Both the position numbers and the translations under genes were made by a program. DNA of 64,000 nucleotides from Arsukibacterium sp. UBA3155 (GTDB lineage: Bacteria; Pseudomonadota; Gammaproteobacteria; Enterobacterales; Alteromonadaceae): the NCBI GenBank assembly GCA_002364615.1, contig DEYP01000023.1:1-64000 (forward strand), read 5' to 3'. The notes under the pieces were generated by a model. That model was not told the DNA's origin. It did no database searches and worked only from the letters and a program-made list of their open reading frames with translations. Shown one piece after another: positions 3,283-22,698 of the stretch (position 1 is the stretch's first letter; every line of letters starts with the position of its first letter).

Positions 3283-5454
3283 TTAGCCAACAGCCTGCAG
3301 TCTGGCATAGGCTGTCATCAGCCATTTACTACCAAGCTGATCAAAATTAACCTGAATGCGCGATTGCGGGCCAACCCCCTCATAATTAAGAACTGTGCCT
3401 TCACCAAACTTTTCATGCAGCACCCGCTGGCCTAAATTAAAACCGGTATTTTCAAATGCGACATGGCTGGCGGCGCTACCAAAACGGTTAGACTGCGCAG
3501 GCCGGCTAACCTGGGTGGTTAAACGAATTTCTTCCAGGTATTCCGCCGGGATCTCCCGGATAAACCGTGACGCTTTATGGTATTGCTCCTGACCATATAA
3601 ACGGCGACTTTCAGCATGGCATAAATACAGCTTTTGCATGGCGCGCGTCATACCGACATAACATAGCCGGCGTTCCTCCTCAAGCCTCGTCGGGTCATCA
3701 CCACTTTGCTGGCTGGGGAACATGCCTTCTTCTAAACCACAAATAAACACCAGCGGGAACTCGAGGCCTTTGGCACTGTGCAAGGTCATCAGTTGCACCG
3801 CGTCTGAGTGCTCTTCCGCCTGATAATCGCCCGCTTCCAGCGCAGCCTGGGATAAAAACGCGGCCAGCGGCGTCATATCCTCAACGGTATTGCTGTTAAA
3901 GTTCTGGCAGGCGGTTACTAACTCGTTTAAGTTTTCTATCCGGGTTTGCGCTTTCTCGCCCTTTTCAGCCTGATACATGGCATACAAACCGGATTGTTTA
4001 ATAATATGCTCGGCCTGTTCAAACAGGGGTAAGTCGGTCAGCTCCTGTTCCAGGCGGTCAACTAATTGCATAAACTGCTCTATGGCATTAGCCGCGCGGC
4101 CACTAAGTTGCTTTTGTTGTAACATCTGCTGCAATGCTTGCCACAGGGTTTGCTGTTCACTGCGGGCATGCAGCCGAACTTTGTTCATGGTGGTATCACC
4201 AATGCCACGGGCCGGAGTGTTAATAATCCGCTCCATCGCCGCATCGTCCTGGCGGTTGCTGATCAGCCGTAAGTAAGCCAGCGCATCTTTAATTTCCTGG
4301 CGCTCATAGAAGCGAAGTCCACCATAGATGCGATAGTGCAGGCCTTCCTGAATTAAGGCTTCTTCTAATACCCGTGACTGGGCATTATTCCGGTATAAAA
4401 TCGCGCTCTCGGTTAAGCTGCCGCCCTGGTTATGCCAGCTGCGAATGCGGCTGACAATAAAGCGCGCTTCGTCCAGTTCGTTAAAGGCGGTATACAGTGA
4501 AATGGCTTCGCCTTCGCTATCTTCCGTCCATAAGTCTTTACCCAGCCGGCCGCTGTTATTGGCGATAACCGCATTAGCGGCTTTTAAAATAGTGGCAGTT
4601 GAGCGGTAGTTTTGTTCCAGCCGAATGGTTTCAGCACCATCGAAATCACGTAAAAATTGCTGAATATTTTCTACCCTTGCCCCACGCCAGCCATAAATAG
4701 ATTGATCATCATCGCCAACTATCATTACCTTGGCCGCCGTACCAGCCAGCAAGCGCAACCAGTTATACTGAATAGCATTGGTATCCTGAAACTCGTCTAC
4801 CAGAATATGGCGGAACCGTTGCTGATAATGACCCCGCACATCGGCGTGGTTTTTCAGTAGCTCAAAGCTGCGTAGCAGTATTTCGGCGAAGTCCACAAGG
4901 CCTGCGCGATCACACATTTCCTGATACGCCGCATAAATTTTAACCATTTGCTGCAGGCTGAAATCGCCGCCGGCGTCAATCATACCCGGGCGCTGACCAT
5001 CGTCTTTGCGGCCATTAATAAACCATTGTATTTGTTTAGCCGGCCAGTGTTTCTCATCCAGGTTTAACGCTTTTAATACCCGCTTCACCAGGCGGTACTG
5101 ATCGTCTGAGTCGATGATCTGAAAACCCTGCGGCAAACCAGCCTGTTGATAATGCGCCCGTAACATGCGGTGCGACAAGCCATGAAAGGTACCCATCCAC
5201 AGGTTATTCAAGCTTACGCCAATAGTGCTTTCTATCCGGCCGCGCATTTCCTGTGCCGCTTTATTGGTAAACGTCACCGCCAATAAGCTGTAGGGTGCGA
5301 CGGTCTCCACCTGCATTAACCAGGCTAAACGATGCACCAGAACCCGGGTTTTACCACTACCGGCACCGGCTAAAATCAGCATATGCTGCGCCGGAGCCGC
5401 CACCGCGTCACGTTGTTTATCGTTTAAACCATCCAGCAGGTTGGATACATCCAT
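3283..5454 (-). CDS. uvrD: DNA helicase II UvrD
   Basis: SF1A 3'-5' helicase of nucleotide excision and mismatch repair. 723 aa from the ATG at 5454 (MDVSNLLDGLNDKQRDAV), nearly the E. coli start; an ATG two codons upstream also exists. Visible motifs: Walker A AGAGSGKT at about 29-36, VDEFQDTN (motif II), GDDDQSIYGWRGA (III), QNYRST, VQLMTLHSAKGLEF (V) and CYVGMTRA (VI). The C-terminal Tudor-like tail (GQRVLHEKFGEGTVLNYEG) contacts RNA polymerase in the family. It belongs to the E. coli-like dapF-xerC-yigB-uvrD block but is now separated from yigB by an inserted region. Confidence 0.97.
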   Translation of the reverse strand: MDVSNLLDGLNDKQRDAVAAPAQHMLILAGAGSGKTRVLVHRLAWLMQVETVAPYSLLAVTFTNKAAQEMRGRIESTIGVSLNNLWMGTFHGLSHRMLRAHYQQAGLPQGFQIIDSDDQYRLVKRVLKALNLDEKHWPAKQIQWFINGRKDDGQRPGMIDAGGDFSLQQMVKIYAAYQEMCDRAGLVDFAEILLRSFELLKNHADVRGHYQQRFRHILVDEFQDTNAIQYNWLRLLAGTAAKVMIVGDDDQSIYGWRGARVENIQQFLRDFDGAETIRLEQNYRSTATILKAANAVIANNSGRLGKDLWTEDSEGEAISLYTAFNELDEARFIVSRIRSWHNQGGSLTESAILYRNNAQSRVLEEALIQEGLHYRIYGGLRFYERQEIKDALAYLRLISNRQDDAAMERIINTPARGIGDTTMNKVRLHARSEQQTLWQALQQMLQQKQLSGRAANAIEQFMQLVDRLEQELTDLPLFEQAEHIIKQSGLYAMYQAEKGEKAQTRIENLNELVTACQNFNSNTVEDMTPLAAFLSQAALEAGDYQAEEHSDAVQLMTLHSAKGLEFPLVFICGLEEGMFPSQQSGDDPTRLEEERRLCYVGMTRAMQKLYLCHAESRRLYGQEQYHKASRFIREIPAEYLEEIRLTTQVSRPAQSNRFGSAASHVAFENTGFNLGQRVLHEKFGEGTVLNYEGVGPQSRIQVNFDQLGSKWLMTAYARLQAVG

Positions 5455-5643
5455 CAGCACATCTCAGTAAACCATTTGCGGCCATTATAACAGCCCTGCG
5501 GTAAGCGCCAAGTAAAGCGATAGAATTAGTGGATAAATAACCAGTATCTTGGCTAGTTATTTCATTGTCTCTGAACAAAAAGCTGGTATTTATTTCAGGG
5601 ACTGGTTATCTTTTGCTTAAAAAATAAGCGCAAAGACGACAGC

Positions 5644-6393
5644 ATGCCGTATAAATTAATTTTTAGTCTTGCAGGTATGGTGGCTTTAGCGGTGGTTTTG
5701 CTGTCGCTGGCGATCGGCGGTGAAAACCAACCGGTAACCGGTACGGCGCACAAACAAATTAGCGTTGAACTACCGCTTGATATGACACTTAACCGGTTTG
5801 CCGATACAGTGCCTGCCAGTTGCCGGCAAAGTAGTGAGTTATTGGCTATCGAGCATACTTTCGATACCACCAGACTGAGTCAATTAAATGTGGCAATGCA
5901 AACATTGCATAACAAAACTGCCGATTCTTTCTGGCAACCGCTGGCTGATGTATTTAAACCTAAGTCGATTTGGCTTAACCCTGCCGATTTCACGGTTGGC
6001 TACTCTGGGCATGCAGTTGAGGTGAATCGACAGGTTAAACGTATTGTTGTGAACTACCCTGAGCGGGATAACAACAGCAGCGTTTATTTGAGTTATGACC
6101 TGCTGATATCAGCTGCGGGCAAGGTAGACGTTATTGCCAATAAATTAGCTGAAAAACACAGTCTGACTATTCCGGTTGAGCTAATTAAAGATAAAACCTT
6201 CATTGGTGTAACTAAGCCACTCCATGGCGGTCGAGTTTCGGATTGCGCAGTAACACTACTACCATTTTTGTTGCCGGAACTTAGCTGGCGCACTGCGCTA
6301 GTGCCTGATAAGTCTTATTGCCTGCTCCATGGTTTGCACGATACTAAGGCCGTTATCGATTTTTATATCAACTGTCCTCAGTTACCAGGGTAA
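5644..6393 (+). CDS. Membrane-anchored hypothetical protein
   Basis: 249 aa, family not recognised. An uncleaved anchor or signal peptide spans about residues 4-25 (LIFSLAGMVALAVVLLSLAI), followed by a periplasmic domain with five cysteines, one near residue 60 and four in the last third. It lies convergent to yigB. Its TAA stop is the first triplet of the left 60-bp direct repeat, so the gene ends exactly at the junction of the mini-island. The ribosome site is weak. Confidence 0.6.
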   Translation: MPYKLIFSLAGMVALAVVLLSLAIGGENQPVTGTAHKQISVELPLDMTLNRFADTVPASCRQSSELLAIEHTFDTTRLSQLNVAMQTLHNKTADSFWQPLADVFKPKSIWLNPADFTVGYSGHAVEVNRQVKRIVVNYPERDNNSSVYLSYDLLISAAGKVDVIANKLAEKHSLTIPVELIKDKTFIGVTKPLHGGRVSDCAVTLLPFLLPELSWRTALVPDKSYCLLHGLHDTKAVIDFYINCPQLPG

Positions 6394-6450
6394 TTAACTG
6401 CTGCACATCAGTCAGCCGGATATGCGGCAATACGTTTACCGGTTGCTGAT
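6391..6450. repeat. Left direct repeat: duplicated yigB 3' end
   Basis: Bases 6391-6430 are identical to 7727-7766 and the following 20 bases match at 15 positions, so 55 of 60 are the same as 7727-7786. The right copy is the last coding part of yigB. Read on the minus strand, this left copy continues in frame to a different end (QQLITLVTEDS then stop at 6368), probably the original yigB terminus. Confidence 0.9.
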
Positions 6451-6535
6451 CTCTGTTCTGGGCAGGCTCTAAAACTACGTTTTGAGATTTCAGAACTCAC
6501 AAGCATTTTCTAAAACCCATATAACTAATAAATAG

Positions 6536-6565
6536 TTGACCTAAGAAAATGGGGGGGGGTATTAT
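6536..6565 (+). promoter_or_regulatory. Sigma-70 promoter with a G9 tract in its spacer
   Basis: A -35 box TTGACC (6536-6541) and a -10 box TATTAT (6560-6565) are 18 bases apart, and the spacer ends in nine G (6551-6559). Slippage to eight G would give the optimal 17-base spacing. Promoters of this build drive phase variation in Neisseria (porA, opc). The start of transcription would be near 6572, about 120 bases before the gene at 6695. Confidence 0.6.
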
Positions 6566-6694
6566 TATTTATCAATAATTACTTTTAATTAACATTCTGC
6601 TCGATTTTAAGTGTCAGTAGTCCATGTTTGGTTATAAGAAAGGATTTAATCTACAAATATCTATTAATCAGAAATACGTCAAGGAACGAAGAAA

Positions 6695-7609
6695 ATGAAT
6701 TATTTGAGACAATATTTAATTGCTTTAATTTTATTCGGTATTACAGCGATTAGTCAGGATGCTAAGGCTGCAACCGACCCGTGTTTTTACTCAAAAAATC
6801 AGTCTGCCAGTAATTGTCGGCATTATGCCTATGATAGCCTCGAGGTGTACTTCCGCGATGCTGATAATCTGGAGCAAAAAGTCATTGCTAAAAGAGTAAA
6901 GTCAAAAAGCACTCAGCAGTTGCTTCATGTCAACTATGATTTTCAAGCTGTTTGTAATGGCACCTGTATTGATCAGAACACATTGGCTGGTGAAATATTA
7001 TGGGCATTTCGCAATGCAATAGTTGAAAACAGACTATATGTTAAAGAAATAATAGATATACACTGCGACCCGACAATGGAAGTGTGCTGTGATGATACTG
7101 GTTGTAATCAAATCTATGGTGTAAATGACACGCAAGACAAAAGCCATACATCAAAGCCGAAAGCTGGTGTTAAATCAGAGCCTATAACCCTGGCAGGAAA
7201 GAAGAGTAAGAAGGTTGACCGGGCCATTCAAAACACCGAAGCAATAACAAACATTATGGATAATGTAGTCCGCAATAGCAGAAACCCGGCTGATTTTACA
7301 GAAAAATGTACGACGGAAGTGTTTGTTGATATGCCAGCTTTCAGTTACTCACCTTTGGGTACCGGTAATTATAAGGTCTGTAAATTAGAAACTAGCGGCT
7401 ATTGTGAACCGATTGAAGGTTATTTAACAGAGTATGAAAACAGTGGATTTGCAGAGTTTAAACATACCCAAGGGCAAATATTCAACGAGCAATTACGCTC
7501 TTTTGTGAGTGAGTTTTTCATGCAGCAGCGTGGAATGTTTTGTAATCAAAACATGTCTTGCGATGCGATAGGTAATTGTACTGTCAGAATGACCTGTCAA
7601 AGATATTGA
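6695..7609 (+). CDS. Secreted cysteine-rich orphan protein
   Basis: 304 aa, family not recognised. A typical signal peptide ends with DAKA before residue 26. The mature part has 15 cysteines, including VCNGTC, MEVCCDDTGC and the C-terminal cluster FCNQNMSCDAIGNCTVRMTC, which suggests a disulfide-stabilised extracellular or periplasmic protein. A good ribosome site AAGGAA (6681-6686) sits 8 bases before the ATG. It is the only gene on the mini-island, its codon use leans to A/T, and its promoter spacer contains nine G. A surface or secreted effector whose expression varies is possible; no catalytic motif was seen. Confidence 0.75.
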   Translation: MNYLRQYLIALILFGITAISQDAKAATDPCFYSKNQSASNCRHYAYDSLEVYFRDADNLEQKVIAKRVKSKSTQQLLHVNYDFQAVCNGTCIDQNTLAGEILWAFRNAIVENRLYVKEIIDIHCDPTMEVCCDDTGCNQIYGVNDTQDKSHTSKPKAGVKSEPITLAGKKSKKVDRAIQNTEAITNIMDNVVRNSRNPADFTEKCTTEVFVDMPAFSYSPLGTGNYKVCKLETSGYCEPIEGYLTEYENSGFAEFKHTQGQIFNEQLRSFVSEFFMQQRGMFCNQNMSCDAIGNCTVRMTCQRY

Positions 7610-7709
7610 AGGAAATGTTATCCTTTTTCATAAATAATTAGCCAAAAATAGTCAGGGTTAATTGGTGTTATAAAGGAGTACTATTTGATAGGTAAATTTA
7701 AAAAACTCA

Positions 7710-8414
7710 CTAATGTGGAAGGAAGTTAATTAACTGCTGCACATCAGTCAGCCGGATATGCGGCAAGGTGCTTACCGCTTGCTGATGGTGATCGAGCCAG
7801 GCAGCCTGGCAGCCGGCGGCTAAGGCGCCCATTACATCGGCGCGGTGACTATCACCAATATGCAGAATTTGCGAAGGAGCCAGCTTCAGTCGCTGTGCTG
7901 CCGCCTGAAACATATCCGGATAGGGTTTCATTTTTCCGGCGGGCCCGGCCTGCAGGCTGAATTCAAATAGCTCGCCTAAGCCCATTTTATTAATACAGGC
8001 ATTGCCATTAGTAATAGCAATTAGCCGGTACTGTGTCGAAAGGGCAGTGAGTAAATCATTCACCTCGGCAGTTAAACTGATTTTAGTGCGGGCATCTAAA
8101 AAAGCATCATAGCCTTGCTGAGCAACCACTTTGGCTTCATCAGTGGCGATACCCAGTTCCAGCAAACCGGCTTCAATGCCAAGCAGGCGCCAGCGGCCGA
8201 TATCGTGCCGAAGTTCCGGTTCAATTTTCGCCAGCTTTAAGCGATGTTGCCACCAGAAATCACTATCTTTACCCTTACTCGCCGGTGCATGTTTAAGCAA
8301 CGCGTCAAGCATCGCCTGCTCTGCTGCAGCGATCACCGGTTTGTTGTCATATAAGGTGTCATCTAAATCAAAAGATAGCGCTTTAATAGGGCTGAGCGCT
8401 TTATAAATATGCAT
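7710..8414 (-). CDS. yigB: HAD-family phosphatase YigB
   Basis: HAD hydrolase resembling E. coli YigB, which dephosphorylates the riboflavin precursor 5-amino-6-(5-phospho-D-ribitylamino)uracil and FMN. 234 aa. The nucleophile motif DLDDT is at 16-20 (ALSFDLDDTLYDN is close to E. coli), ITNG is motif II and GDSHRADVMGA motif IV. Start ATG 8414 has GTGAGAAG just upstream; an in-frame GTG at 8426 also exists. It overlaps the end of the M14 peptidase gene by 14 bases. Its last codons (NFLPH) come from the right repeat of the mini-island, and an older 3' end survives at 6368-6450. Confidence 0.88.
   Translation of the reverse strand: MHIYKALSPIKALSFDLDDTLYDNKPVIAAAEQAMLDALLKHAPASKGKDSDFWWQHRLKLAKIEPELRHDIGRWRLLGIEAGLLELGIATDEAKVVAQQGYDAFLDARTKISLTAEVNDLLTALSTQYRLIAITNGNACINKMGLGELFEFSLQAGPAGKMKPYPDMFQAAAQRLKLAPSQILHIGDSHRADVMGALAAGCQAAWLDHHQQAVSTLPHIRLTDVQQLINFLPH
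7727..7786. repeat. Right direct repeat: current yigB 3' end
   Basis: The partner of 6391-6450: the first 40 bases are identical and 55 of 60 match overall. This copy is in use as the C-terminal codons of yigB (HIRLTDVQQLIN). The five differences cluster in the part most distant from the junction, as expected if the left copy has drifted. Confidence 0.9.
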
Positions 8415-10449
8415 TGGACTTCTCACAAACTCTGCGGATAAACAGCAACAATAACAGGCTGAAAAAGCCGCTGATACTGCCGCTACTACTGCCTTCTAAG
8501 GTATTGGCTGACGGGGGAGTCGGCTGTGGCGGAGCGCTGACTGTAATTGTTTTACTGATGCTGGCGCTTAACGTATTGCTGTCGGTGATGGTTAACCTAA
8601 CCTGATAACTGCCGGCACTGGCAAACTGATGGGTTGTTGCCGCGCCGCTTAAGGTGCTGCCATCGGAAAGTTGCCACTGATAACCGGTTATTTCTGAATC
8701 AGTGCTGCTGGCACTACCATCAAAACTGCAGCTAAGGGCACTACACTGACTGCTAAAATCGGCCACGGGACTGCGCAGCTCACCTACTGTGATAAATACC
8801 GCACTTACTGCACCGAGATTACCTGCGCTGTCCTCTGCTTGCACATATAACAGCTGTTCACCGGCCGGCCAGTCGTTAGTCAGTAGCTGGGCCTGCATAT
8901 TTTTAACAGAGCCGTTATCGTTACTATTAATGGTTTCCGCTGTGGCTAACTCAACACTGGCGCTGTGCCAGGGCGGTGCATGCCGGTAGACCCGGGCGGC
9001 AACAACGGCCTGGCTTTGCTCACTGCCATTGCTTTGATTAAAGAGTTGATCGTCGGCGTTAAAGTTCAGGGTCAGGATGTCACCCGCCTGAATATAGGCA
9101 TGGCTGGCACCGTTAGCATTAAGCCCGGCAATGTCGGGCCCGGACGGCAGCTGATAAGGCGCCTTGCTAACTTTTGCAGCATACTGCAGCAGCGGTAAAT
9201 TGGCCGGCAGCAATGAATTGGTAAAAAAGCCGCAGCCTTGAAAAAAGCCGGTGCCAAGCTCCAAAGTTATGGCTGCAACGCCACGCTCACCATAACTGAC
9301 GCTGTCACTGGTGCCATCGGTCGGGTATAAGCCAATGCTCTGGCTGGGGAAGTAATTATTAAACCAAGCCAGCTTGCGGCCGAGAGTGCGCAGCTGGCTG
9401 GCATTAGGTGCAGGATTGTTAGTGTGTCCCCAGGGCCAGAGGATCAACTCGCCAGCACTGTGTAAGTCGAGGTGCAGCCCCATGGTGTCTGCTGGCGCCG
9501 GGTCCTGAAAGCTGCTGCCACGACGATCGCTATACAGCTGGCGAATATAGTTCTCTACTGCCTGAGTTTCCGGCTCAGAGCCTGCTTCTGGCCCGCGGTA
9601 AATGGTAGAGCAGGCCTCGCCACTGGAGCCATTGCTGCTGATATTCCAGCTGTAGCTGAAATTGCGGTTTAAATCGACACCGGGCTCATCCTGCGGGCAG
9701 TGAGTAAGATTAGCATTTTTGCGCCACAACTGGCCCTGTTCGGCGTATTTGCGACCATCCGGGTTCATCTGAAACAGTAAATGAATCTCGGTGAAATTCA
9801 GCAGCCAATGGGCATCAGCCTGCTGCTGATAATTCTGCAGCAGCTGTCTGGCAAAGTGCAGGTTAAGCTCCGCCGTAACATATTCGCGGGCATGCATGGC
9901 ACTTTGCACAAATAAGATTGGTTTGGTATCAGCCGGGTTAGCAACCGGTTCGCGCCGACCCAGCCGCAATACCATCAATGGGTAGCCGCCGTCGCCCTGA
10001 GTATGCTGCCACGAGCTGCCAATACTGAACCACTGGGCAATTTCAGGGTAGTCAGCGGCCAGTTGGGCGGCTTGCTGGTAGGTGCCTTCAACGGTGTGGT
10101 AGCAAGGATAGCCGGCAATAGTATCGCTACTTACACTGCTGGTTGCAGTAGTTTGACTAGCTGCGCTGAGCTCCGGATAAGCATCGGCTGGCAGGGGTTG
10201 CCAGCTCAGGCCGTAGTTTCTCAGTGCTGCCAGTTCTGTTCCAGGCAGCCGCACATCTAAAGTTAGCGCTGCGCGGTCAGTTGCCAGAATATAAGGGTGT
10301 AGGCTGATACTTGCCTGCGCATACTGCGCCATGTCGCTGACGTGCAAGCGAACATGCTGGTATGTCGGGTCTGTTGTTGCCGTATGGCTACTGGCCAGCA
10401 ATGGCCATAGCAGTACAACAAATAAAGCGAAACCATACAATTTGCTCAT
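8401..10449 (-). CDS. Secreted M14 zinc carboxypeptidase with PKD domain
   Basis: 682 aa. Signal peptide at 1-22, then a peptidase M14 domain: zinc ligands in HAREYVTAEL and in LDLHSAG, substrate residues in NPDGRKYAEQ and DLNRNFSYSW, and catalytic Glu in AAITLELGTG. A PKD-like domain follows at about 565-640 (YQWQLSDGSTLSGAATTHQF). The C-terminus (GSSSGSISGFFSLLLLLFIRR) looks like a GlyGly-CTERM sorting tail: Gly/Ser stretch, hydrophobic helix, Arg pair. The start codon overlaps the xerC stop (TAATG), so translation is probably coupled. In E. coli yigB directly follows xerC, so this gene was inserted into the operon. Confidence 0.87.
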   Translation of the reverse strand: MSKLYGFALFVVLLWPLLASSHTATTDPTYQHVRLHVSDMAQYAQASISLHPYILATDRAALTLDVRLPGTELAALRNYGLSWQPLPADAYPELSAASQTTATSSVSSDTIAGYPCYHTVEGTYQQAAQLAADYPEIAQWFSIGSSWQHTQGDGGYPLMVLRLGRREPVANPADTKPILFVQSAMHAREYVTAELNLHFARQLLQNYQQQADAHWLLNFTEIHLLFQMNPDGRKYAEQGQLWRKNANLTHCPQDEPGVDLNRNFSYSWNISSNGSSGEACSTIYRGPEAGSEPETQAVENYIRQLYSDRRGSSFQDPAPADTMGLHLDLHSAGELILWPWGHTNNPAPNASQLRTLGRKLAWFNNYFPSQSIGLYPTDGTSDSVSYGERGVAAITLELGTGFFQGCGFFTNSLLPANLPLLQYAAKVSKAPYQLPSGPDIAGLNANGASHAYIQAGDILTLNFNADDQLFNQSNGSEQSQAVVAARVYRHAPPWHSASVELATAETINSNDNGSVKNMQAQLLTNDWPAGEQLLYVQAEDSAGNLGAVSAVFITVGELRSPVADFSSQCSALSCSFDGSASSTDSEITGYQWQLSDGSTLSGAATTHQFASAGSYQVRLTITDSNTLSASISKTITVSAPPQPTPPSANTLEGSSSGSISGFFSLLLLLFIRRVCEKSNAYL

Positions 10450-12048: not shown

Positions 12049-12875
12049 AACGAAAGTTGTCCATCGAATACGTGTTCAGCCGGGCCGGTCATTTTAACCA
12101 TCTGGCCCGGGCCATTCCAGCGAATGTGTAAGCTACCACCGGGCAAGTCGACCTGCACCTGTGGCCCGAGTTTCTTCTGCAGCTGGCCAACTACCACTGC
12201 CGCGCAGGCACCGGTGCCGCAGGCCAGTGTTTCACCGGTACCGCGCTCCCATACCCGCAATTTAATGTGCGAGGGCGAAATTACCTGCATAAAGCCGATA
12301 TTGGCTTTTTGTGGAAAACGTTCGTGTACTTCCAATAGCGGCCCTAACTCTGCCACGTTGGCACTGGCAATATCGTCTACCTCAAGCACGGCGTGCGGGT
12401 TGCCCATTGACGCCACACCGCAAAGTACCGTGTGTTCGTCGGCCCGCATAATATAGGTGGCTTCCTGTTTCTGGGCTTTGAACGGCACCATTGCCGGGTC
12501 GAGCTGTGGAATACCCATGTTCACCGTTACCTGGCCGTCCTGTTCAACATACAGGGTAATTCTGGCCGATTTGGTACTTACCTGAATTTTACTTTTATTG
12601 GTCAGGCCGCGGTGGCGCACAAACTTAGCAAAACAGCGGGCACCATTGCCGCATTGCTCTACTTCACTGCCATCGGCATTGAAAATACGGTAATGAAAAT
12701 CCAGTTCCGGATCATAAGGCGGCTCTACCATCAGTAACTGGTCGAAGCCGATACCAAAATTACGATCGGCCAGTTGGCGGATTTGCTCTTTGGTCAGAAA
12801 AATGTTCTGGCTGACGCTGTCGACCATCATAAAGTCGTTGCCCAGGCCCTGCATTTTCGAGAAATTAATGATCAT
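12045..12875 (-). CDS. dapF: Diaminopimelate epimerase
   Basis: Converts LL- to meso-diaminopimelate, needed for peptidoglycan and lysine. 276 aa (E. coli 274). Both catalytic cysteines are present, in [11 protein letters not shown] and in [10 protein letters not shown], together with [10 protein letters not shown] near the N-terminus. AAGG stands six bases or so before the ATG. It follows lysA, the next enzyme of the pathway, by 10 bases. Confidence 0.97.
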
Positions 12876-12885
12876 TGGCGCCTTA

Positions 12886-14145
12886 TTACTGTTCAGTTAG
12901 CAGCTGCTCGCCGCGCCATAAATCCTGCCATTGTTCGCGGGCCCGGATAAGGTGGCTGCGATTGCCCACCACCATAACTTCGGCCACCCGCGGCCGGCTG
13001 TTGTAGTTCGAACTCATGGTAAAGCCATAAGCACCGGCGGAGCGCACGGCCAGCAAATCACCCTGGGCAATGGCCAGCATTCGATCTTTACCCAGAAAAT
13101 CGCCGGTTTCACATACCGGGCCTACCACATCGTACAAATGTGGCGTGGCAGCACTTTTCGGGTTTACCGGCACAATATTCTGCCAGGCGCTGTACAGTGC
13201 CGGCCGGATTAAATCGTTCATGGCGGCATCAACGATGGCAAAGTTCTTTTCCTGACCTGGCTTTAAGTATTCTACCCGTGTTAATAAGATACCCGCATTG
13301 GCCATAATGGCCCGGCCGGGTTCCATGATCAGTTCCAGCTCAGGGTACTGTTGTAACCGTTCCACCACTTTGCTGATGTAGGCATAGGGTTCAGGTGGGG
13401 TCTCTTTATCGTAGGTGACACCAAGACCACCACCGATATCGATATGGCTAAGCACAATGCCATCTTGTTTAAGCGCATCAATTAAACTCAGTAGTTTTTC
13501 CAGCGCTTCTAAAAACGGTTGGGTTTCAGTAAGCTGCGAGCCGATATGGCAATCTACCCCTACCAGCTTAACGTGGCTCATCTGGCTGGCTGACCGGTAT
13601 ATTGCCGGTGCAGTTAAAATATCAATACCAAATTTATTGGCTTTTAAACCGGTTGAAATATAAGGGTGGGTTTTGGCATCAATATCCGGGTTAACCCTTA
13701 GCGACACCGGGGCCTTAACATTTAAACTGCTGGCGACCTGTTGCAGGCGCTCAAGCTCAGCCTCAGACTCAACATTAAAACACTTTATTCCCAGTTGCAG
13801 CGCAAATCGCATGTCGTCAACGGTTTTTGCAACGCCGGAAAACACCACTTTCGCCGGGTCGCCGCCGGCGGTAATAACCCGGCGCAGTTCGCCACCGGAG
13901 ACGATATCAAAACCACTACCCAGTTTACTCAGTACATTTAACACCGCCAGATTGCTGTTAGCTTTAACCGCATAACATACCAGGCTGTGCGGATGCGCCG
14001 ATGCAGCACTGGCAAAGGCCTGATAATGGCGCTCGATAGTCGCTTTTGAATAGACATAGCAAGGGGTGCCAAACTCGGTTGCCAGCGCATTTAAATCGAC
14101 CTGTTCGGCATACAGGCAATCGTGCTGGTAATTAAAATGGTCCAC
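12886..14145 (-). CDS. lysA: Diaminopimelate decarboxylase
   Basis: PLP enzyme that makes L-lysine from meso-diaminopimelate. 419 aa (E. coli 420). I place the start at GTG 14145 because GAGGAG lies seven bases upstream and the protein then begins as the family does; a longer frame reaches back through lptM to 14259 but is not supported. Signature parts: YAVKANSN (PLP lysine), [26 protein letters not shown] and [11 protein letters not shown]. The 5' end overlaps the lptM 3' end by 14 bases. Confidence 0.95.
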
Positions 14146-20067: not shown

Positions 20068-20176
20068 ACCCCACCCTCTGAGTAAGCTCCAAAATCTTTT
20101 GCAAGGCGTTTTGCCGTGCGAAGAAACCTGGCCTGTTGGCCATTTCCTATAACAAAACTACATGCAGGAAGTAAAA

Positions 20177-21571
20177 ATGAAAGCACTAAGTCTGTTAGGC
20201 GTCGTTGCGCTATTGCTTTGTGGCAATGCGCAGGCCTGTTTAATCCAGGAAAGCGAAAATAATAATAATGAAAGTGCTGCCGATGGCCCGCTGTGCAGTG
20301 ATGTCGCCGTGCAGGGCGCCATTGGCAGCCGCACCGATCAGGACTGGTTTTACTTTGACACCAGTTCTGCCGGTAATATTTCGGTAAGCCTTAGCCATGC
20401 CAATAATGACGATTTTGATTGGTTCTTATACCGCGCCAGTGGCAGTTACATTGCCTCTGGCCAAAGCAGTGCTAATCCGGAAACAGGTACCTATGTTGAC
20501 TCTCCAGCCGGCGCCCATTTTATTAAAGTGAGCCGCTACAGCGGTACCGGTAGTTACCAGTTAACCGTTAATTTTAGCGGAGCGGGTGGTGGAACCACGG
20601 ATCCTGAGCCAGAGCCTGAACCGGAAAATTGCAATTACGGCAGTCGTCCGGCAAAGCCCGGTGGCTTATCAGCAACCTTGCTGGGCAGTAGTACCGATGT
20701 TTGTATCAGTTTATTCAACCCGGCATTGTTATTGATGGGCGGAGGTGCTGATGTGGATGCGGCCTTCGTCAACCGGATTAAACCCCATATAAACGGCGGC
20801 AATGTGGTGGTACTGCGTACCTCTGGTACGGCAGCTTATAACGACTATTTACAGGGTTTAACTGACGCGGCTTCAGTAGAAACCTTAATTATAAATACCC
20901 GGACCAAAGCCAACAGTGACTATGTCGACTGGGCAATTCGCAGTGCCGAGTTTGTCTTTATTGCCGGTGGTGACCAAGCTGATTATCTGAACCAGTGGCA
21001 GGGTACCAGGGTGCAGAATGCGCTAATGCACGTTTATAACAAAGGTGGTGCTTTGGGTGGTACGTCGGCGGGTAACCATGTATTGGGCGAGTTTATCTAT
21101 GATCCGGATGGGGTTCTGGGTGCAATAAGCTCTGAAGCTGTTACCGATTTTTGCCATGAAACGGTTAATATCAGCAGCAACTTTCTTGGTTTGCCGCTCT
21201 TGGATGGCATTATTACCGATACCCATTTTAAACAGCGTGATCGGATGGGCCGCTCGGCAGTATTTCAGGCCAAATTGGGAAGTTCAAGCCGGGTAGTGGC
21301 GGTATCAGAGGCAACTTCGCTGTTTGTCACGGCAGACGGTAACAGTGTGGTTGATGGTAGCCACGAGGTATACGTTTTGCGCGCCGACAGTCAGACCCAG
21401 TATCAGCAAGCCAGTTGTGGCCAGCCTGTAATTATTAACAACTTACTGCGTTATAAGCTGTTACCCGGTCAGAGCTACAACCTGCTGAACAATAGCAGCA
21501 GTGTCAGCCCAACGCGGCTGAGCATCGATGGTCGTAGTGGTAGTTTCTACAATCCGGCTAATCCTTATTAA
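20177..21571 (+). CDS. Secreted cyanophycinase-like S51 peptidase with PPC domain
   Basis: 464 aa from ATG 20177, chosen for AGGAAG five bases upstream; an ATG at 20162 adds five residues. Signal peptide to about AQA, then a pre-peptidase C-terminal (PPC) beta domain at about 25-135, a Pro/Glu linker (TDPEPEPEPE), and a catalytic domain like cyanophycinase. The nucleophile serine is in GGTSAGNHV, His in DTHFKQRDRMGR and Glu in VSEATSLFV, so the triad looks intact. Cyanophycinase cleaves the Asp-Arg polymer cyanophycin to dipeptides; the true substrate here is unknown. It is followed by a lipoprotein paralog with the same C-terminal end (NPANPY). Confidence 0.85.
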   Translation: MKALSLLGVVALLLCGNAQACLIQESENNNNESAADGPLCSDVAVQGAIGSRTDQDWFYFDTSSAGNISVSLSHANNDDFDWFLYRASGSYIASGQSSANPETGTYVDSPAGAHFIKVSRYSGTGSYQLTVNFSGAGGGTTDPEPEPEPENCNYGSRPAKPGGLSATLLGSSTDVCISLFNPALLLMGGGADVDAAFVNRIKPHINGGNVVVLRTSGTAAYNDYLQGLTDAASVETLIINTRTKANSDYVDWAIRSAEFVFIAGGDQADYLNQWQGTRVQNALMHVYNKGGALGGTSAGNHVLGEFIYDPDGVLGAISSEAVTDFCHETVNISSNFLGLPLLDGIITDTHFKQRDRMGRSAVFQAKLGSSSRVVAVSEATSLFVTADGNSVVDGSHEVYVLRADSQTQYQQASCGQPVIINNLLRYKLLPGQSYNLLNNSSSVSPTRLSIDGRSGSFYNPANPY

Positions 21572-21592
21572 GCCAGCTTTAGTAGAGAAATA

Positions 21593-21620
21593 CAGCTTGC
21601 TATCCTGAGGTGGCAAGCTG
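21593..21620. other. Hairpin between the two cyanophycinase-like genes
   Basis: An 8-bp stem (CAGCTTGC / GCAAGCTG) with a 12-base loop in the 68-base gap between the paralogs. There is no T-run after it, so it may be a processing or stability element rather than a terminator. Confidence 0.4.
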
Positions 21621-21639
21621 ATTAAAAGGTTAAGCAAAG

Positions 21640-22698
21640 ATGAAATATTATATGATGTCACTACTGTTATTGTTAGCCGGTTGCAGCCAGCAAGGTTCAG
21701 GCACAGACGCTGTCCCAGCGCTGGGCGCATTAGCGAATGCAGAACAATGTGGCTTTGGGCCGCGGCCAGCAAAACCGGGAGTATTGCAGCGATATGCCGT
21801 TGGCTACAACGAAGATGTTTGTGTGCCGCTGGTACCCGCTGATGCTGGTATTATTCTGATGGGCGGCAGTACTGACGTAGACAGCATTTTTAGCGACAAA
21901 GTACGCCCTTATATCCAGGGTGGCAACGTACTGGTGTTACGCACTCAGGGCGCTGCCGGCTATAACGATTATTTCTTACACTTACTGCAGGCCGCTTCGG
22001 TGGAAACGTTGCTGGTTGATAGCAGAGATAAAGCCAATAGCGACTATGTGCGATGGGCAGTACAAAGTGCCGAGTTTATCTGGTTTGCTGGAGGGGATCA
22101 GTCTACTTATATTTCAAATTGGCAAAATACTGCGTTGCAACAGGCACTGCATGCTGCTTATCAGCGCGGCGCCATTATTGGTGGCACTTCGGCGGGCAAT
22201 ACCATTCTCAGTAGTATTATTTATAATCCTGATGGCGTTGGCAGTGCGGTGTCACAAGAGGTGGTACAAGATTTTTGTGATACCAATATTGCGTTCAGCC
22301 CCGATTTTTTAAACGCGCCAATGCTGGGTAATACCCTTGCCGATACCCATTTTAAACAACGCGACAGAATGGGCCGGCTTATGGTGTTTCTTGGTCACCA
22401 CCAGCAACATCTGCTAACGGGTATTGGCGTGTCAGAGCGCACAGCGTTATGGGTAGAACGTAATGGCCATACTGAAGTTTTCGGCGAACATGAGGTCTAC
22501 ATAGTACGCTCTGATCAACAAACGATGTTCCGGCAAACGGAATGTGCAAAACCGGTAATTATTGATGATATGTTGTACTACACATTGCGCGCCGGCAACC
22601 ATTATCACCTGTTTAACCATACCAGCTCGGTGCCGCCGAGCAGGCTGAGTATTAATGGCAATAACAGTGTCTTTTATAGCCCGGCTAATCCTTATTAA
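21640..22698 (+). CDS. Lipoprotein cyanophycinase-like S51 peptidase
   Basis: 352 aa. A short lipoprotein signal with lipobox LLAGC places it in the outer or inner membrane leaflet facing the periplasm or outside. It lacks the PPC domain of the upstream gene but matches its catalytic domain throughout: GFGPRPAKPG, GGTSAGNTI (Ser), DTHFKQRDRMGR (His) and VSERTALWV (Glu), ending FYSPANPY. The pair arose by tandem duplication and has diverged well. One form secreted, one lipid-anchored suggests two places of action on the same type of polymer. Confidence 0.85.
   Translation: MKYYMMSLLLLLAGCSQQGSGTDAVPALGALANAEQCGFGPRPAKPGVLQRYAVGYNEDVCVPLVPADAGIILMGGSTDVDSIFSDKVRPYIQGGNVLVLRTQGAAGYNDYFLHLLQAASVETLLVDSRDKANSDYVRWAVQSAEFIWFAGGDQSTYISNWQNTALQQALHAAYQRGAIIGGTSAGNTILSSIIYNPDGVGSAVSQEVVQDFCDTNIAFSPDFLNAPMLGNTLADTHFKQRDRMGRLMVFLGHHQQHLLTGIGVSERTALWVERNGHTEVFGEHEVYIVRSDQQTMFRQTECAKPVIIDDMLYYTLRAGNHYHLFNHTSSVPPSRLSINGNNSVFYSPANPY

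What the first reader, a model, noticed from the sequence alone, without database searches (positions are those of the whole stretch)
6391..7786. Mini-island created at the 3' end of yigB, with an old yigB end left behind
Sixty bases of the yigB 3' end occur twice in direct orientation (first 40 identical, 55 of 60 overall) and bracket 1.3 kb of A/T-rich DNA with one secreted-protein gene. The left copy still reads in frame to an alternative yigB terminus (QQLITLVTEDS), and begins exactly at the stop codon of the gene at 5644. This is the geometry of site-specific integration at a gene end, but without an integrase, so it could be a very small cargo unit of a kind not usually recorded.
Basis: partly seen in the sequence, partly recalled or inferred. 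Interest (0 to 1): 0.75.

Follow-up and report, generated by a model that had tools for sequence, protein, structure and literature searches.

The report
Gene-swap spot with leftover gene ends
A small foreign gene has been spliced in at the end of a housekeeping gene, leaving an old end of that gene behind as a scar; related bacteria carry different genes at the same spot, and the scars fit ordinary recombination of incoming DNA better than a new kind of mobile element.

Summary
Sixty bases of the yigB 3' end occur twice (55/60; 40 identical) around 1.3 kb of 36% GC DNA with one secreted-protein-like gene. The own genome shows no third copy.

The yigB-uvrD gap is a gene-swapping spot. Of 38 relatives, 18 have 82-220 bp there and 20 hold other genes; no integrase was seen among the ORFs. 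Relatives of the insert gene (32-35%) sit at the same spot in three genus genomes; gene 5644, beside the remnant, does so in three Arsukibacterium.

Comparable scars occur in the group: R. maricola has two extra yigB ends, one beside a piece of uvrD leader; A. indicum has a duplicated uvrD leader fused to a yigB tail; Rheinheimera sp. D18 has an old xerC end beside yigB. They lie in different genes and start at different codons.

Best explanation: incoming DNA recombined through shared gene-end sequence and was joined without homology at its other end, stacking versions of the gap. Site-specific integration is less likely, but not excluded for the window pair alone. Known kind: minimal mobile elements and displacement arrays.

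The parts
7710..8426 (-). yigB (HAD-type phosphatase gene, name recalled from gene order and sequence), intact; its last codons read INFLPH-stop
7727..7786 (-). right copy of the 60-base repeat, inside the 3' end of intact yigB
6368..6455 (-). old yigB 3' end (remnant, about 23 yigB-like codons then TEDS-stop); 6391-6450 is the left repeat copy
6451..7726 (.). inserted DNA between the two repeat copies, 36% GC, no integrase ORF
6695..7609 (+). cargo gene: 304-aa protein with 15 Cys and a signal-peptide-like start, no Pfam or NCBIfam match; relatives of 32-35% identity at the same yigB spot in three genus genomes, two of them named (Alishewanella aestuarii L052, A. tabrizica L057)
5644..6393 (+). 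older cargo gene of the same gap, 249 aa, convergent with yigB; 69-77% identical in three Arsukibacterium in the same gap
3283..5460 (-). uvrD, the other core gene flanking the variable gap

Best explanation
The yigB-uvrD gap is an integrase-free gene-exchange spot between core genes. Older state (inferred): yigB - gene 5644 - uvrD. DNA from a relative carrying yigB end - insert gene entered the cell. It recombined with the resident through homologous sequence at the yigB 3' end, and its other end was joined without homology. Intact yigB thereby gained a new tail and the insert gene, and the old yigB end stayed beside gene 5644. Two sub-routes are open. One is linear homology-facilitated illegitimate recombination (HFIR), with or without later gene conversion of the 40-bp core. 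The other is end-joining of the fragment into a circle followed by a single crossover in the core. Shown: the repeat, the swapping spot and comparable scars in other species. Inferred: the order of events and the enzymes.
For: (1) The gap varies in 38 relatives: 18 of 38 have 82-220 bp; 20 of 38 hold genes of at least eight families not linked by BLASTP at 1e-4, and none of the ORFs seen is an integrase. Neighbouring gaps vary little: dapF-DUF484 -1 to 29 bp and DUF484-xerC 19 to 102 bp (34 of 38 measurable), uvrD-tmcA -30 to -15 bp (38 of 38). (2) R. maricola L053 has two more yigB 3' ends in the gap. One is 97% identical to its own yigB over 107 bp. Two bases before it lies a 20-bp stretch matching the R. 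hassiensis uvrD leader at 19 of 20, and the DNA in front of that resembles R. hassiensis and R. nanhaiensis gap genes. (3) Mirror image in A. indicum L035: a uvrD leader copy (71/74 to A. perlucidum) fused to a yigB tail of R. aquimaris type, colinear for 186 alignment columns up to the MFS gene; its final leader changes from R. aquimaris type to native type around GCTGTTATAATGGCC. (4) Rheinheimera sp. D18 L049: a 91-bp decayed xerC 3' end just before yigB, beyond a convergent 227-aa ORF. (5) Remnants start about 49, 35, 30, 27 and 4 codons before their stop (my reading), so there is no fixed boundary. (6) Among 569 ORFs of at least 150 aa in 39 sequences, one search lists 10 hits of a gene's C-terminus downstream of itself: 4 are fragments of yigB (window, L053 twice) and xerC (L049); I read the other 6 as whole-gene tandem relatives.
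Against: In the window the two copies differ at 0 of 38 core positions but at 5 of the 20 bases upstream. P is 0.003 that all five fall there, a post hoc figure. Seven other Arsukibacterium differ from the window core at 5-7 of 38; the least of all 28 relatives compared is 4 of 38 (L054). Intact yigB upstream of the core looks native (2/20 from A. ikkense) while the remnant is 4/20 from its nearest. That is a reciprocal crossover inside the core, as in attL/attR, and simple linear HFIR does not predict it; a circle or later gene conversion must be added. The identical tracts of the window and of L053 overlap in CCGCAT, so a short common crossover point is possible for those two. The supposed older state is seen in no relative: in the three with gene 5644 a 124-aa gene lies between it and yigB. 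The 20-bp leader match in L053 is short (E 0.015) and overlaps by some 10 bases the end of a match to a decayed gap gene. No genome of the same species (nearest YigB 88%) and no donor of the insert was found.
Confidence: 0.72

Rival explanations
1. Site-specific integration: the 1.3-kb unit is a mini-element whose att core is the 40-bp yigB end, moved by a tyrosine recombinase acting in trans (like a cis-mobilizable element).
For: Identical 40-bp core with both flanks different and the target gene kept whole; the identical tract of L053 overlaps it in six bases, CCGCAT; the own genome has 16 matches to PF00589, xerC included, some of which might act in trans.
Against: Comparable scars in the group lie in the xerC end, at other points of the yigB end and in the uvrD leader; the L035 and L049 scars lack the core. 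No integrase was seen among the gap ORFs of 38 relatives. No match of the unit in plasmids or phages, and no exact match of the back-translated core peptide in viral contigs.
Confidence: 0.15
2. Plain tandem duplication of the yigB end, later split by an unrelated insertion.
For: Direct orientation and short distance.
Against: The copies differ just outside the 40-bp core on both sides. Relatives carry the insert gene family and gene 5644 separately in the same gap. A. indicum carries a unit with a foreign-type yigB tail.
Confidence: 0.05
3. Insertion by a transposable element without recognised genes, with the yigB end as passenger.
For: Single A/T-rich gene, compact unit.
Against: No inverted pair of 16 bases or more with arms at the two ends of the unit; no second copy in the own genome of 6391-6700 or of the insert protein. 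Of 7 protein matches in the genus, 4 lie at this spot, 3 elsewhere.
Confidence: 0.03

Closest known systems
Minimal mobile element (MME; Saunders and Snyder 2002, not read; definition from a passage of the review PMC3898611)
   Same: A gap between two conserved genes that holds different whole-gene cassettes, with no mobility genes
   Different: Compared here across species, not strains; old gap versions are stacked and leave truncated ends of the core genes, implying non-homologous joints besides homologous recombination
T6SS effector-immunity arrays of Vibrio cholerae (Kirchberger et al. 2017, author name recalled; PMC5361080, passages read) and Rhs C-terminal displacement (cited there)
   Same: New module added behind a conserved anchor; displaced 3' ends and old cargo pushed downstream; HFIR proposed as the mechanism
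   Different: The anchors are housekeeping genes (xerC, yigB, uvrD leader), not toxin genes; cargo is a mix of unrelated genes
Small variable segments of bacterial genomes (PMC2884548, passages read)
   Same: Short variable segments that mostly are not known mobile elements; homology-assisted illegitimate recombination proposed for a class of them; 10-18% flanked by direct repeats
   Different: There a genome-wide survey within species; here one spot across a genus with readable junctions
Cis-mobilizable elements and integrative elements at gene 3' ends (recalled, no call)
   Same: Direct repeat of a gene end around cargo, target gene kept whole
   Different: No integrase seen, no boundary shared by all scars, mirror scar at the uvrD leader

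Membership tests
Minimal mobile element | Region between two conserved genes | tested here: met
   yigB and uvrD flank the gap in all 38 relatives examined
Minimal mobile element | Different whole-gene cassettes in different strains | tested here: inconclusive
   Different cassettes in different species; strains of one species were not available
Minimal mobile element | Incorporated solely by homologous recombination of the flanks | tested here: not met
   By my reading, the uvrD leader and yigB sequence meet with 1 shared base (L035) or 2 unassigned bases (L053), so one end is non-homologous in those events; normal exchange may act in the others
HFIR displacement array | Old 3' end of the anchor gene displaced downstream together with the old cargo | tested here: met
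   Window remnant followed by gene 5644; L053 remnants followed by the 178-aa and 472-aa genes
HFIR displacement array | One homologous and one non-homologous joint per event | tested here: inconclusive
   Fits L035; in the window the crossover pattern also allows a circle
HFIR displacement array | Natural uptake of DNA by the host | not tested
   A ComEC/Rec2 match above the cut-off exists, but the family also rings in 12 of 14 control genomes (5 above the cut-off); competence itself was not tested
Cis-mobilizable / integrative element at a gene end | Direct-repeat att core at the end of the target gene | tested here: met
   40-bp identical core
Cis-mobilizable / integrative element at a gene end | Same core used by other insertions at the site | tested here: not met
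   L035 and L049 scars lack the core; the L053 tract overlaps it in six bases only
Cis-mobilizable / integrative element at a gene end | Excision as a circle by a recombinase | not testable with these tools
   Needs reads or PCR

The most novel reading that the evidence does not exclude
The xerC and yigB 3' ends are targeted by an unrecognised class of integrase-less, roughly 1-kb units. Each carries one secreted-protein gene pointing into the target plus a replacement 3' end for the target gene, and the units stack in arrays with the newest nearest the target.
Probability: 0.1. Interest if true: 0.65.

Novelty: new member of a known kind. Interest (0 to 1): 0.35.

Why it matters
Integrase-free gene exchange often leaves no trace. 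Here one operon end keeps readable scars (old xerC end, old yigB ends, old uvrD leader) in several species of one genus. The direction of stacking and the nature of each joint can therefore be read from sequence, and the process could be tested in a laboratory strain.

Tried and rejected
Tried, no result: Pfam and NCBIfam for the insert protein and gene 5644. A structure model of the insert protein, mean pLDDT 54; the PDB fold search gave nothing with E <= 0.001 and is not used. Donor of DNA 6440-6720: only 25-35 bp matches in 2 of the 30 other genomes of the genus. Plasmids, phages, viral contigs: none. Papers on yigB as an integration site: 0 for the terms; the single paper is a Salmonella Tn-seq study by its listing. 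(listings only) and the passages of PMC1538595 added nothing that I use.

Rejected: a fixed att site at yigB (other scars use other sequence); a transposable element (no second copy found); simple duplication (both flanks differ).

Limits: one search does not list the window's own short remnant, so such whole-genome searches miss short scars; the local searches do find the window remnant or its repeat. One search is a cut-off list and was not used for counts. Pfam was run on 10 representative gap proteins and the two window proteins, not on every ORF. The own genome could not be read whole, so scars elsewhere in it were not surveyed. In one search, hits in L032, L033, L041, L046, L059 and L067 were set aside as weak, low-identity or short-gap matches.

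Full report
Observation. One search finds the direct repeat 6391-6450 / 7727-7786 (55 of 60 identical; the first 40 on the + strand identical). It is the strongest self-match listed for the window, and a search of the own genome with 6391-6700 shows no third copy. The right copy is the 3' end of an intact yigB on the minus strand (7710-8426). The left copy is a truncated yigB end in the same orientation, about 1.3 kb closer to uvrD. Between them lies 36.4% GC DNA with one long gene, 6695-7609. The left copy starts at the TAA of the convergent gene 5644-6393. It reads in the yigB frame to QQLITLVTEDS-stop, but the last codons are antisense of gene 5644: L032 shares nearly the same DNA where yigB is not its neighbour.

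The spot in relatives. All 31 genomes of the genus that were searched have yigB, and one search gave 54 named loci. I used the 38 most similar (L031-L068: Arsukibacterium, Rheinheimera, Alishewanella, Alkalimonas and some MAGs) and left the 16 more distant ones (L069-L084) out of the counts; the unnamed loci L001-L030 largely repeat the same genomes and were not counted. In 18 of 38 the distance from the end of the yigB match to uvrD is 82-220 bp; in 20 of 38 it is larger, up to 4.6 kb. The contents differ: a 124-aa gene plus a relative of gene 5644 (three Arsukibacterium), the 124-aa gene plus an MFS transporter (A. indicum), the 124-aa gene alone (A. agri), MFS alone (nine), repeated 152-aa genes, a 472-473-aa gene, a 360-aa gene, and relatives of the window's insert gene (A. 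aestuarii, A. tabrizica). By my reading none of the ORFs is an integrase; Pfam on ten representatives recognised only the MFS protein above its cut-off. As a control, dapF-DUF484 (-1 to 29 bp) and DUF484-xerC (19 to 102 bp), both measurable in 34 of 38, and uvrD-tmcA (-30 to -15 bp, 38 of 38) vary little, while xerC-yigB (-13 bp to 9.7 kb, 35 of 38) and yigB-uvrD (63 bp to 4.6 kb) vary by kilobases. So yigB lies between two exchange spots.

Other scars. (a) R. maricola L053 has two more yigB 3' ends in the gap, at 12309-12395 and 13371-13505. The second is 97% identical to its own yigB over 107 bp, then the tails differ. Two bases in front of it, at 13349-13368, lie 20 bases that match the uvrD leader of R. 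hassiensis (19 of 20; its own leader shares 13). The DNA in front of that resembles gap genes of R. hassiensis (up to 61%) and R. nanhaiensis (up to 87%). The leader match is short, and it overlaps the end of a match to a decayed gap gene by about 10 bases. (b) A. indicum L035 shows the mirror image: a copy of the Arsukibacterium uvrD leader (71 of 74) runs straight into a yigB tail of R. aquimaris type. That stretch stays colinear for 186 alignment columns to the MFS gene, and the final leader changes from R. aquimaris type to native type. (c) Rheinheimera sp. D18 L049 has a 91-bp decayed copy of the xerC 3' end just before yigB, beyond a convergent 227-aa ORF. Of 569 ORFs tested in 39 sequences, ten hits of a C-terminus downstream of its own gene were listed: four are fragments of yigB or xerC, and I read the other six as tandem relatives. 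That test is too coarse for the four-codon tail of L035.

Mechanism. An att site would predict one core and one boundary. The scars instead start about 49, 35, 30, 27 and 4 codons before their stop (my reading), lie in two different genes, and include the leader of a third gene on the far side. This is what recombination of incoming DNA gives: homologous pairing in a core gene at one end and a joint without homology at the other. The window pair adds a twist. The copies share all 38 compared core bases but differ at 5 of the 20 upstream, whereas seven other Arsukibacterium differ from the window core at 5-7 of 38 and the closest of all 28 relatives at 4 (P = 0.003, post hoc). Intact yigB upstream of the core is native-like. 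That points to a crossover inside the core, reached either by a circularised fragment with a single crossover or by later gene conversion between the two copies. The identical tracts of the window and L053 overlap in six bases (CCGCAT), so a common crossover point for those two is not excluded; L035 and L049 lack it. No relative shows the inferred older state exactly: where gene 5644 occurs, a 124-aa gene lies between it and yigB. I cannot separate the sub-routes without more strains. The genome has a ComEC/Rec2 match, but that family also rings in 12 of 14 controls (5 above the cut-off) and proves nothing about competence. The 16 PF00589 matches in the genome, xerC among them, leave a recombinase in trans possible.

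Comparison with known kinds. [quoted passage not shown] The spot works like one, but the joints in L035 and L053 are not homologous. PMC5361080 (passages) describes arrays built by successive addition, with displaced 3' ends, and proposes HFIR; it cites Rhs loci as similar. PMC2884548 (passages) proposes the same for a class of small variable segments. PMC3240628 (start of the abstract in the listing) reports the process in E. coli conjugation. The finding is therefore a new example of known processes, with readable scars at housekeeping genes.

The cargo. The insert protein has 304 aa, 15 Cys and a signal-like N-terminus (my reading). Six of 31 genus genomes, the own included, have a match, seven matches in all: at the yigB spot in the own genome, G001, G008 and G029, and elsewhere in G020 (39%, plus one partial) and G021 (partial). 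No family or fold was found, so its function stays open; a secreted, disulphide-rich protein is the most I can say.

Noticed in passing
window 8427-10448 and the same gap in L031-L068: The neighbouring xerC-yigB gap is also variable (from overlapping genes to 9.7 kb in 35 of 38 measurable); in the window it holds a 682-aa carboxypeptidase-like gene (name by my reading).
   Followed up: partly
L049 9900-9989: Decayed xerC 3' end (91 bp) directly before yigB, beyond a convergent 227-aa secreted-like ORF.
   Followed up: yes
window 5583-5598: CTGGTATTTATTTCAG upstream of gene 5644 resembles a LexA box (consensus recalled); two of the three relatives with this gene keep CTG-N10-CAG there.
   Followed up: no
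window 6551-6559: Run of nine G about 135 bases upstream of the insert gene start; possibly a length-variable tract affecting expression.
   Followed up: no
window 5527-5545 and uvrD leaders printed: ACTGGTTATTTATCCACTA upstream of uvrD is exact in 15 of the 22 leaders printed (own count), nearly so in 6, absent in L052, whatever the gap holds; possibly a regulatory site.
   Followed up: no
window 20161-22695: Two similar genes in tandem (54% over the last 50 residues).
   Followed up: no
L102 5497-6417 (G020): A 39% relative of the insert gene sits away from yigB, between a Spy/CpxP-like and an ntrC-like gene (names by my reading).
   Followed up: partly
L098 (G012:C3:46692-46943): Weak relative (28%, E 2e-4) of gene 5644 upstream of yigB, that is towards the xerC-yigB gap, in the genome with the triple yigB end.
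   Followed up: no
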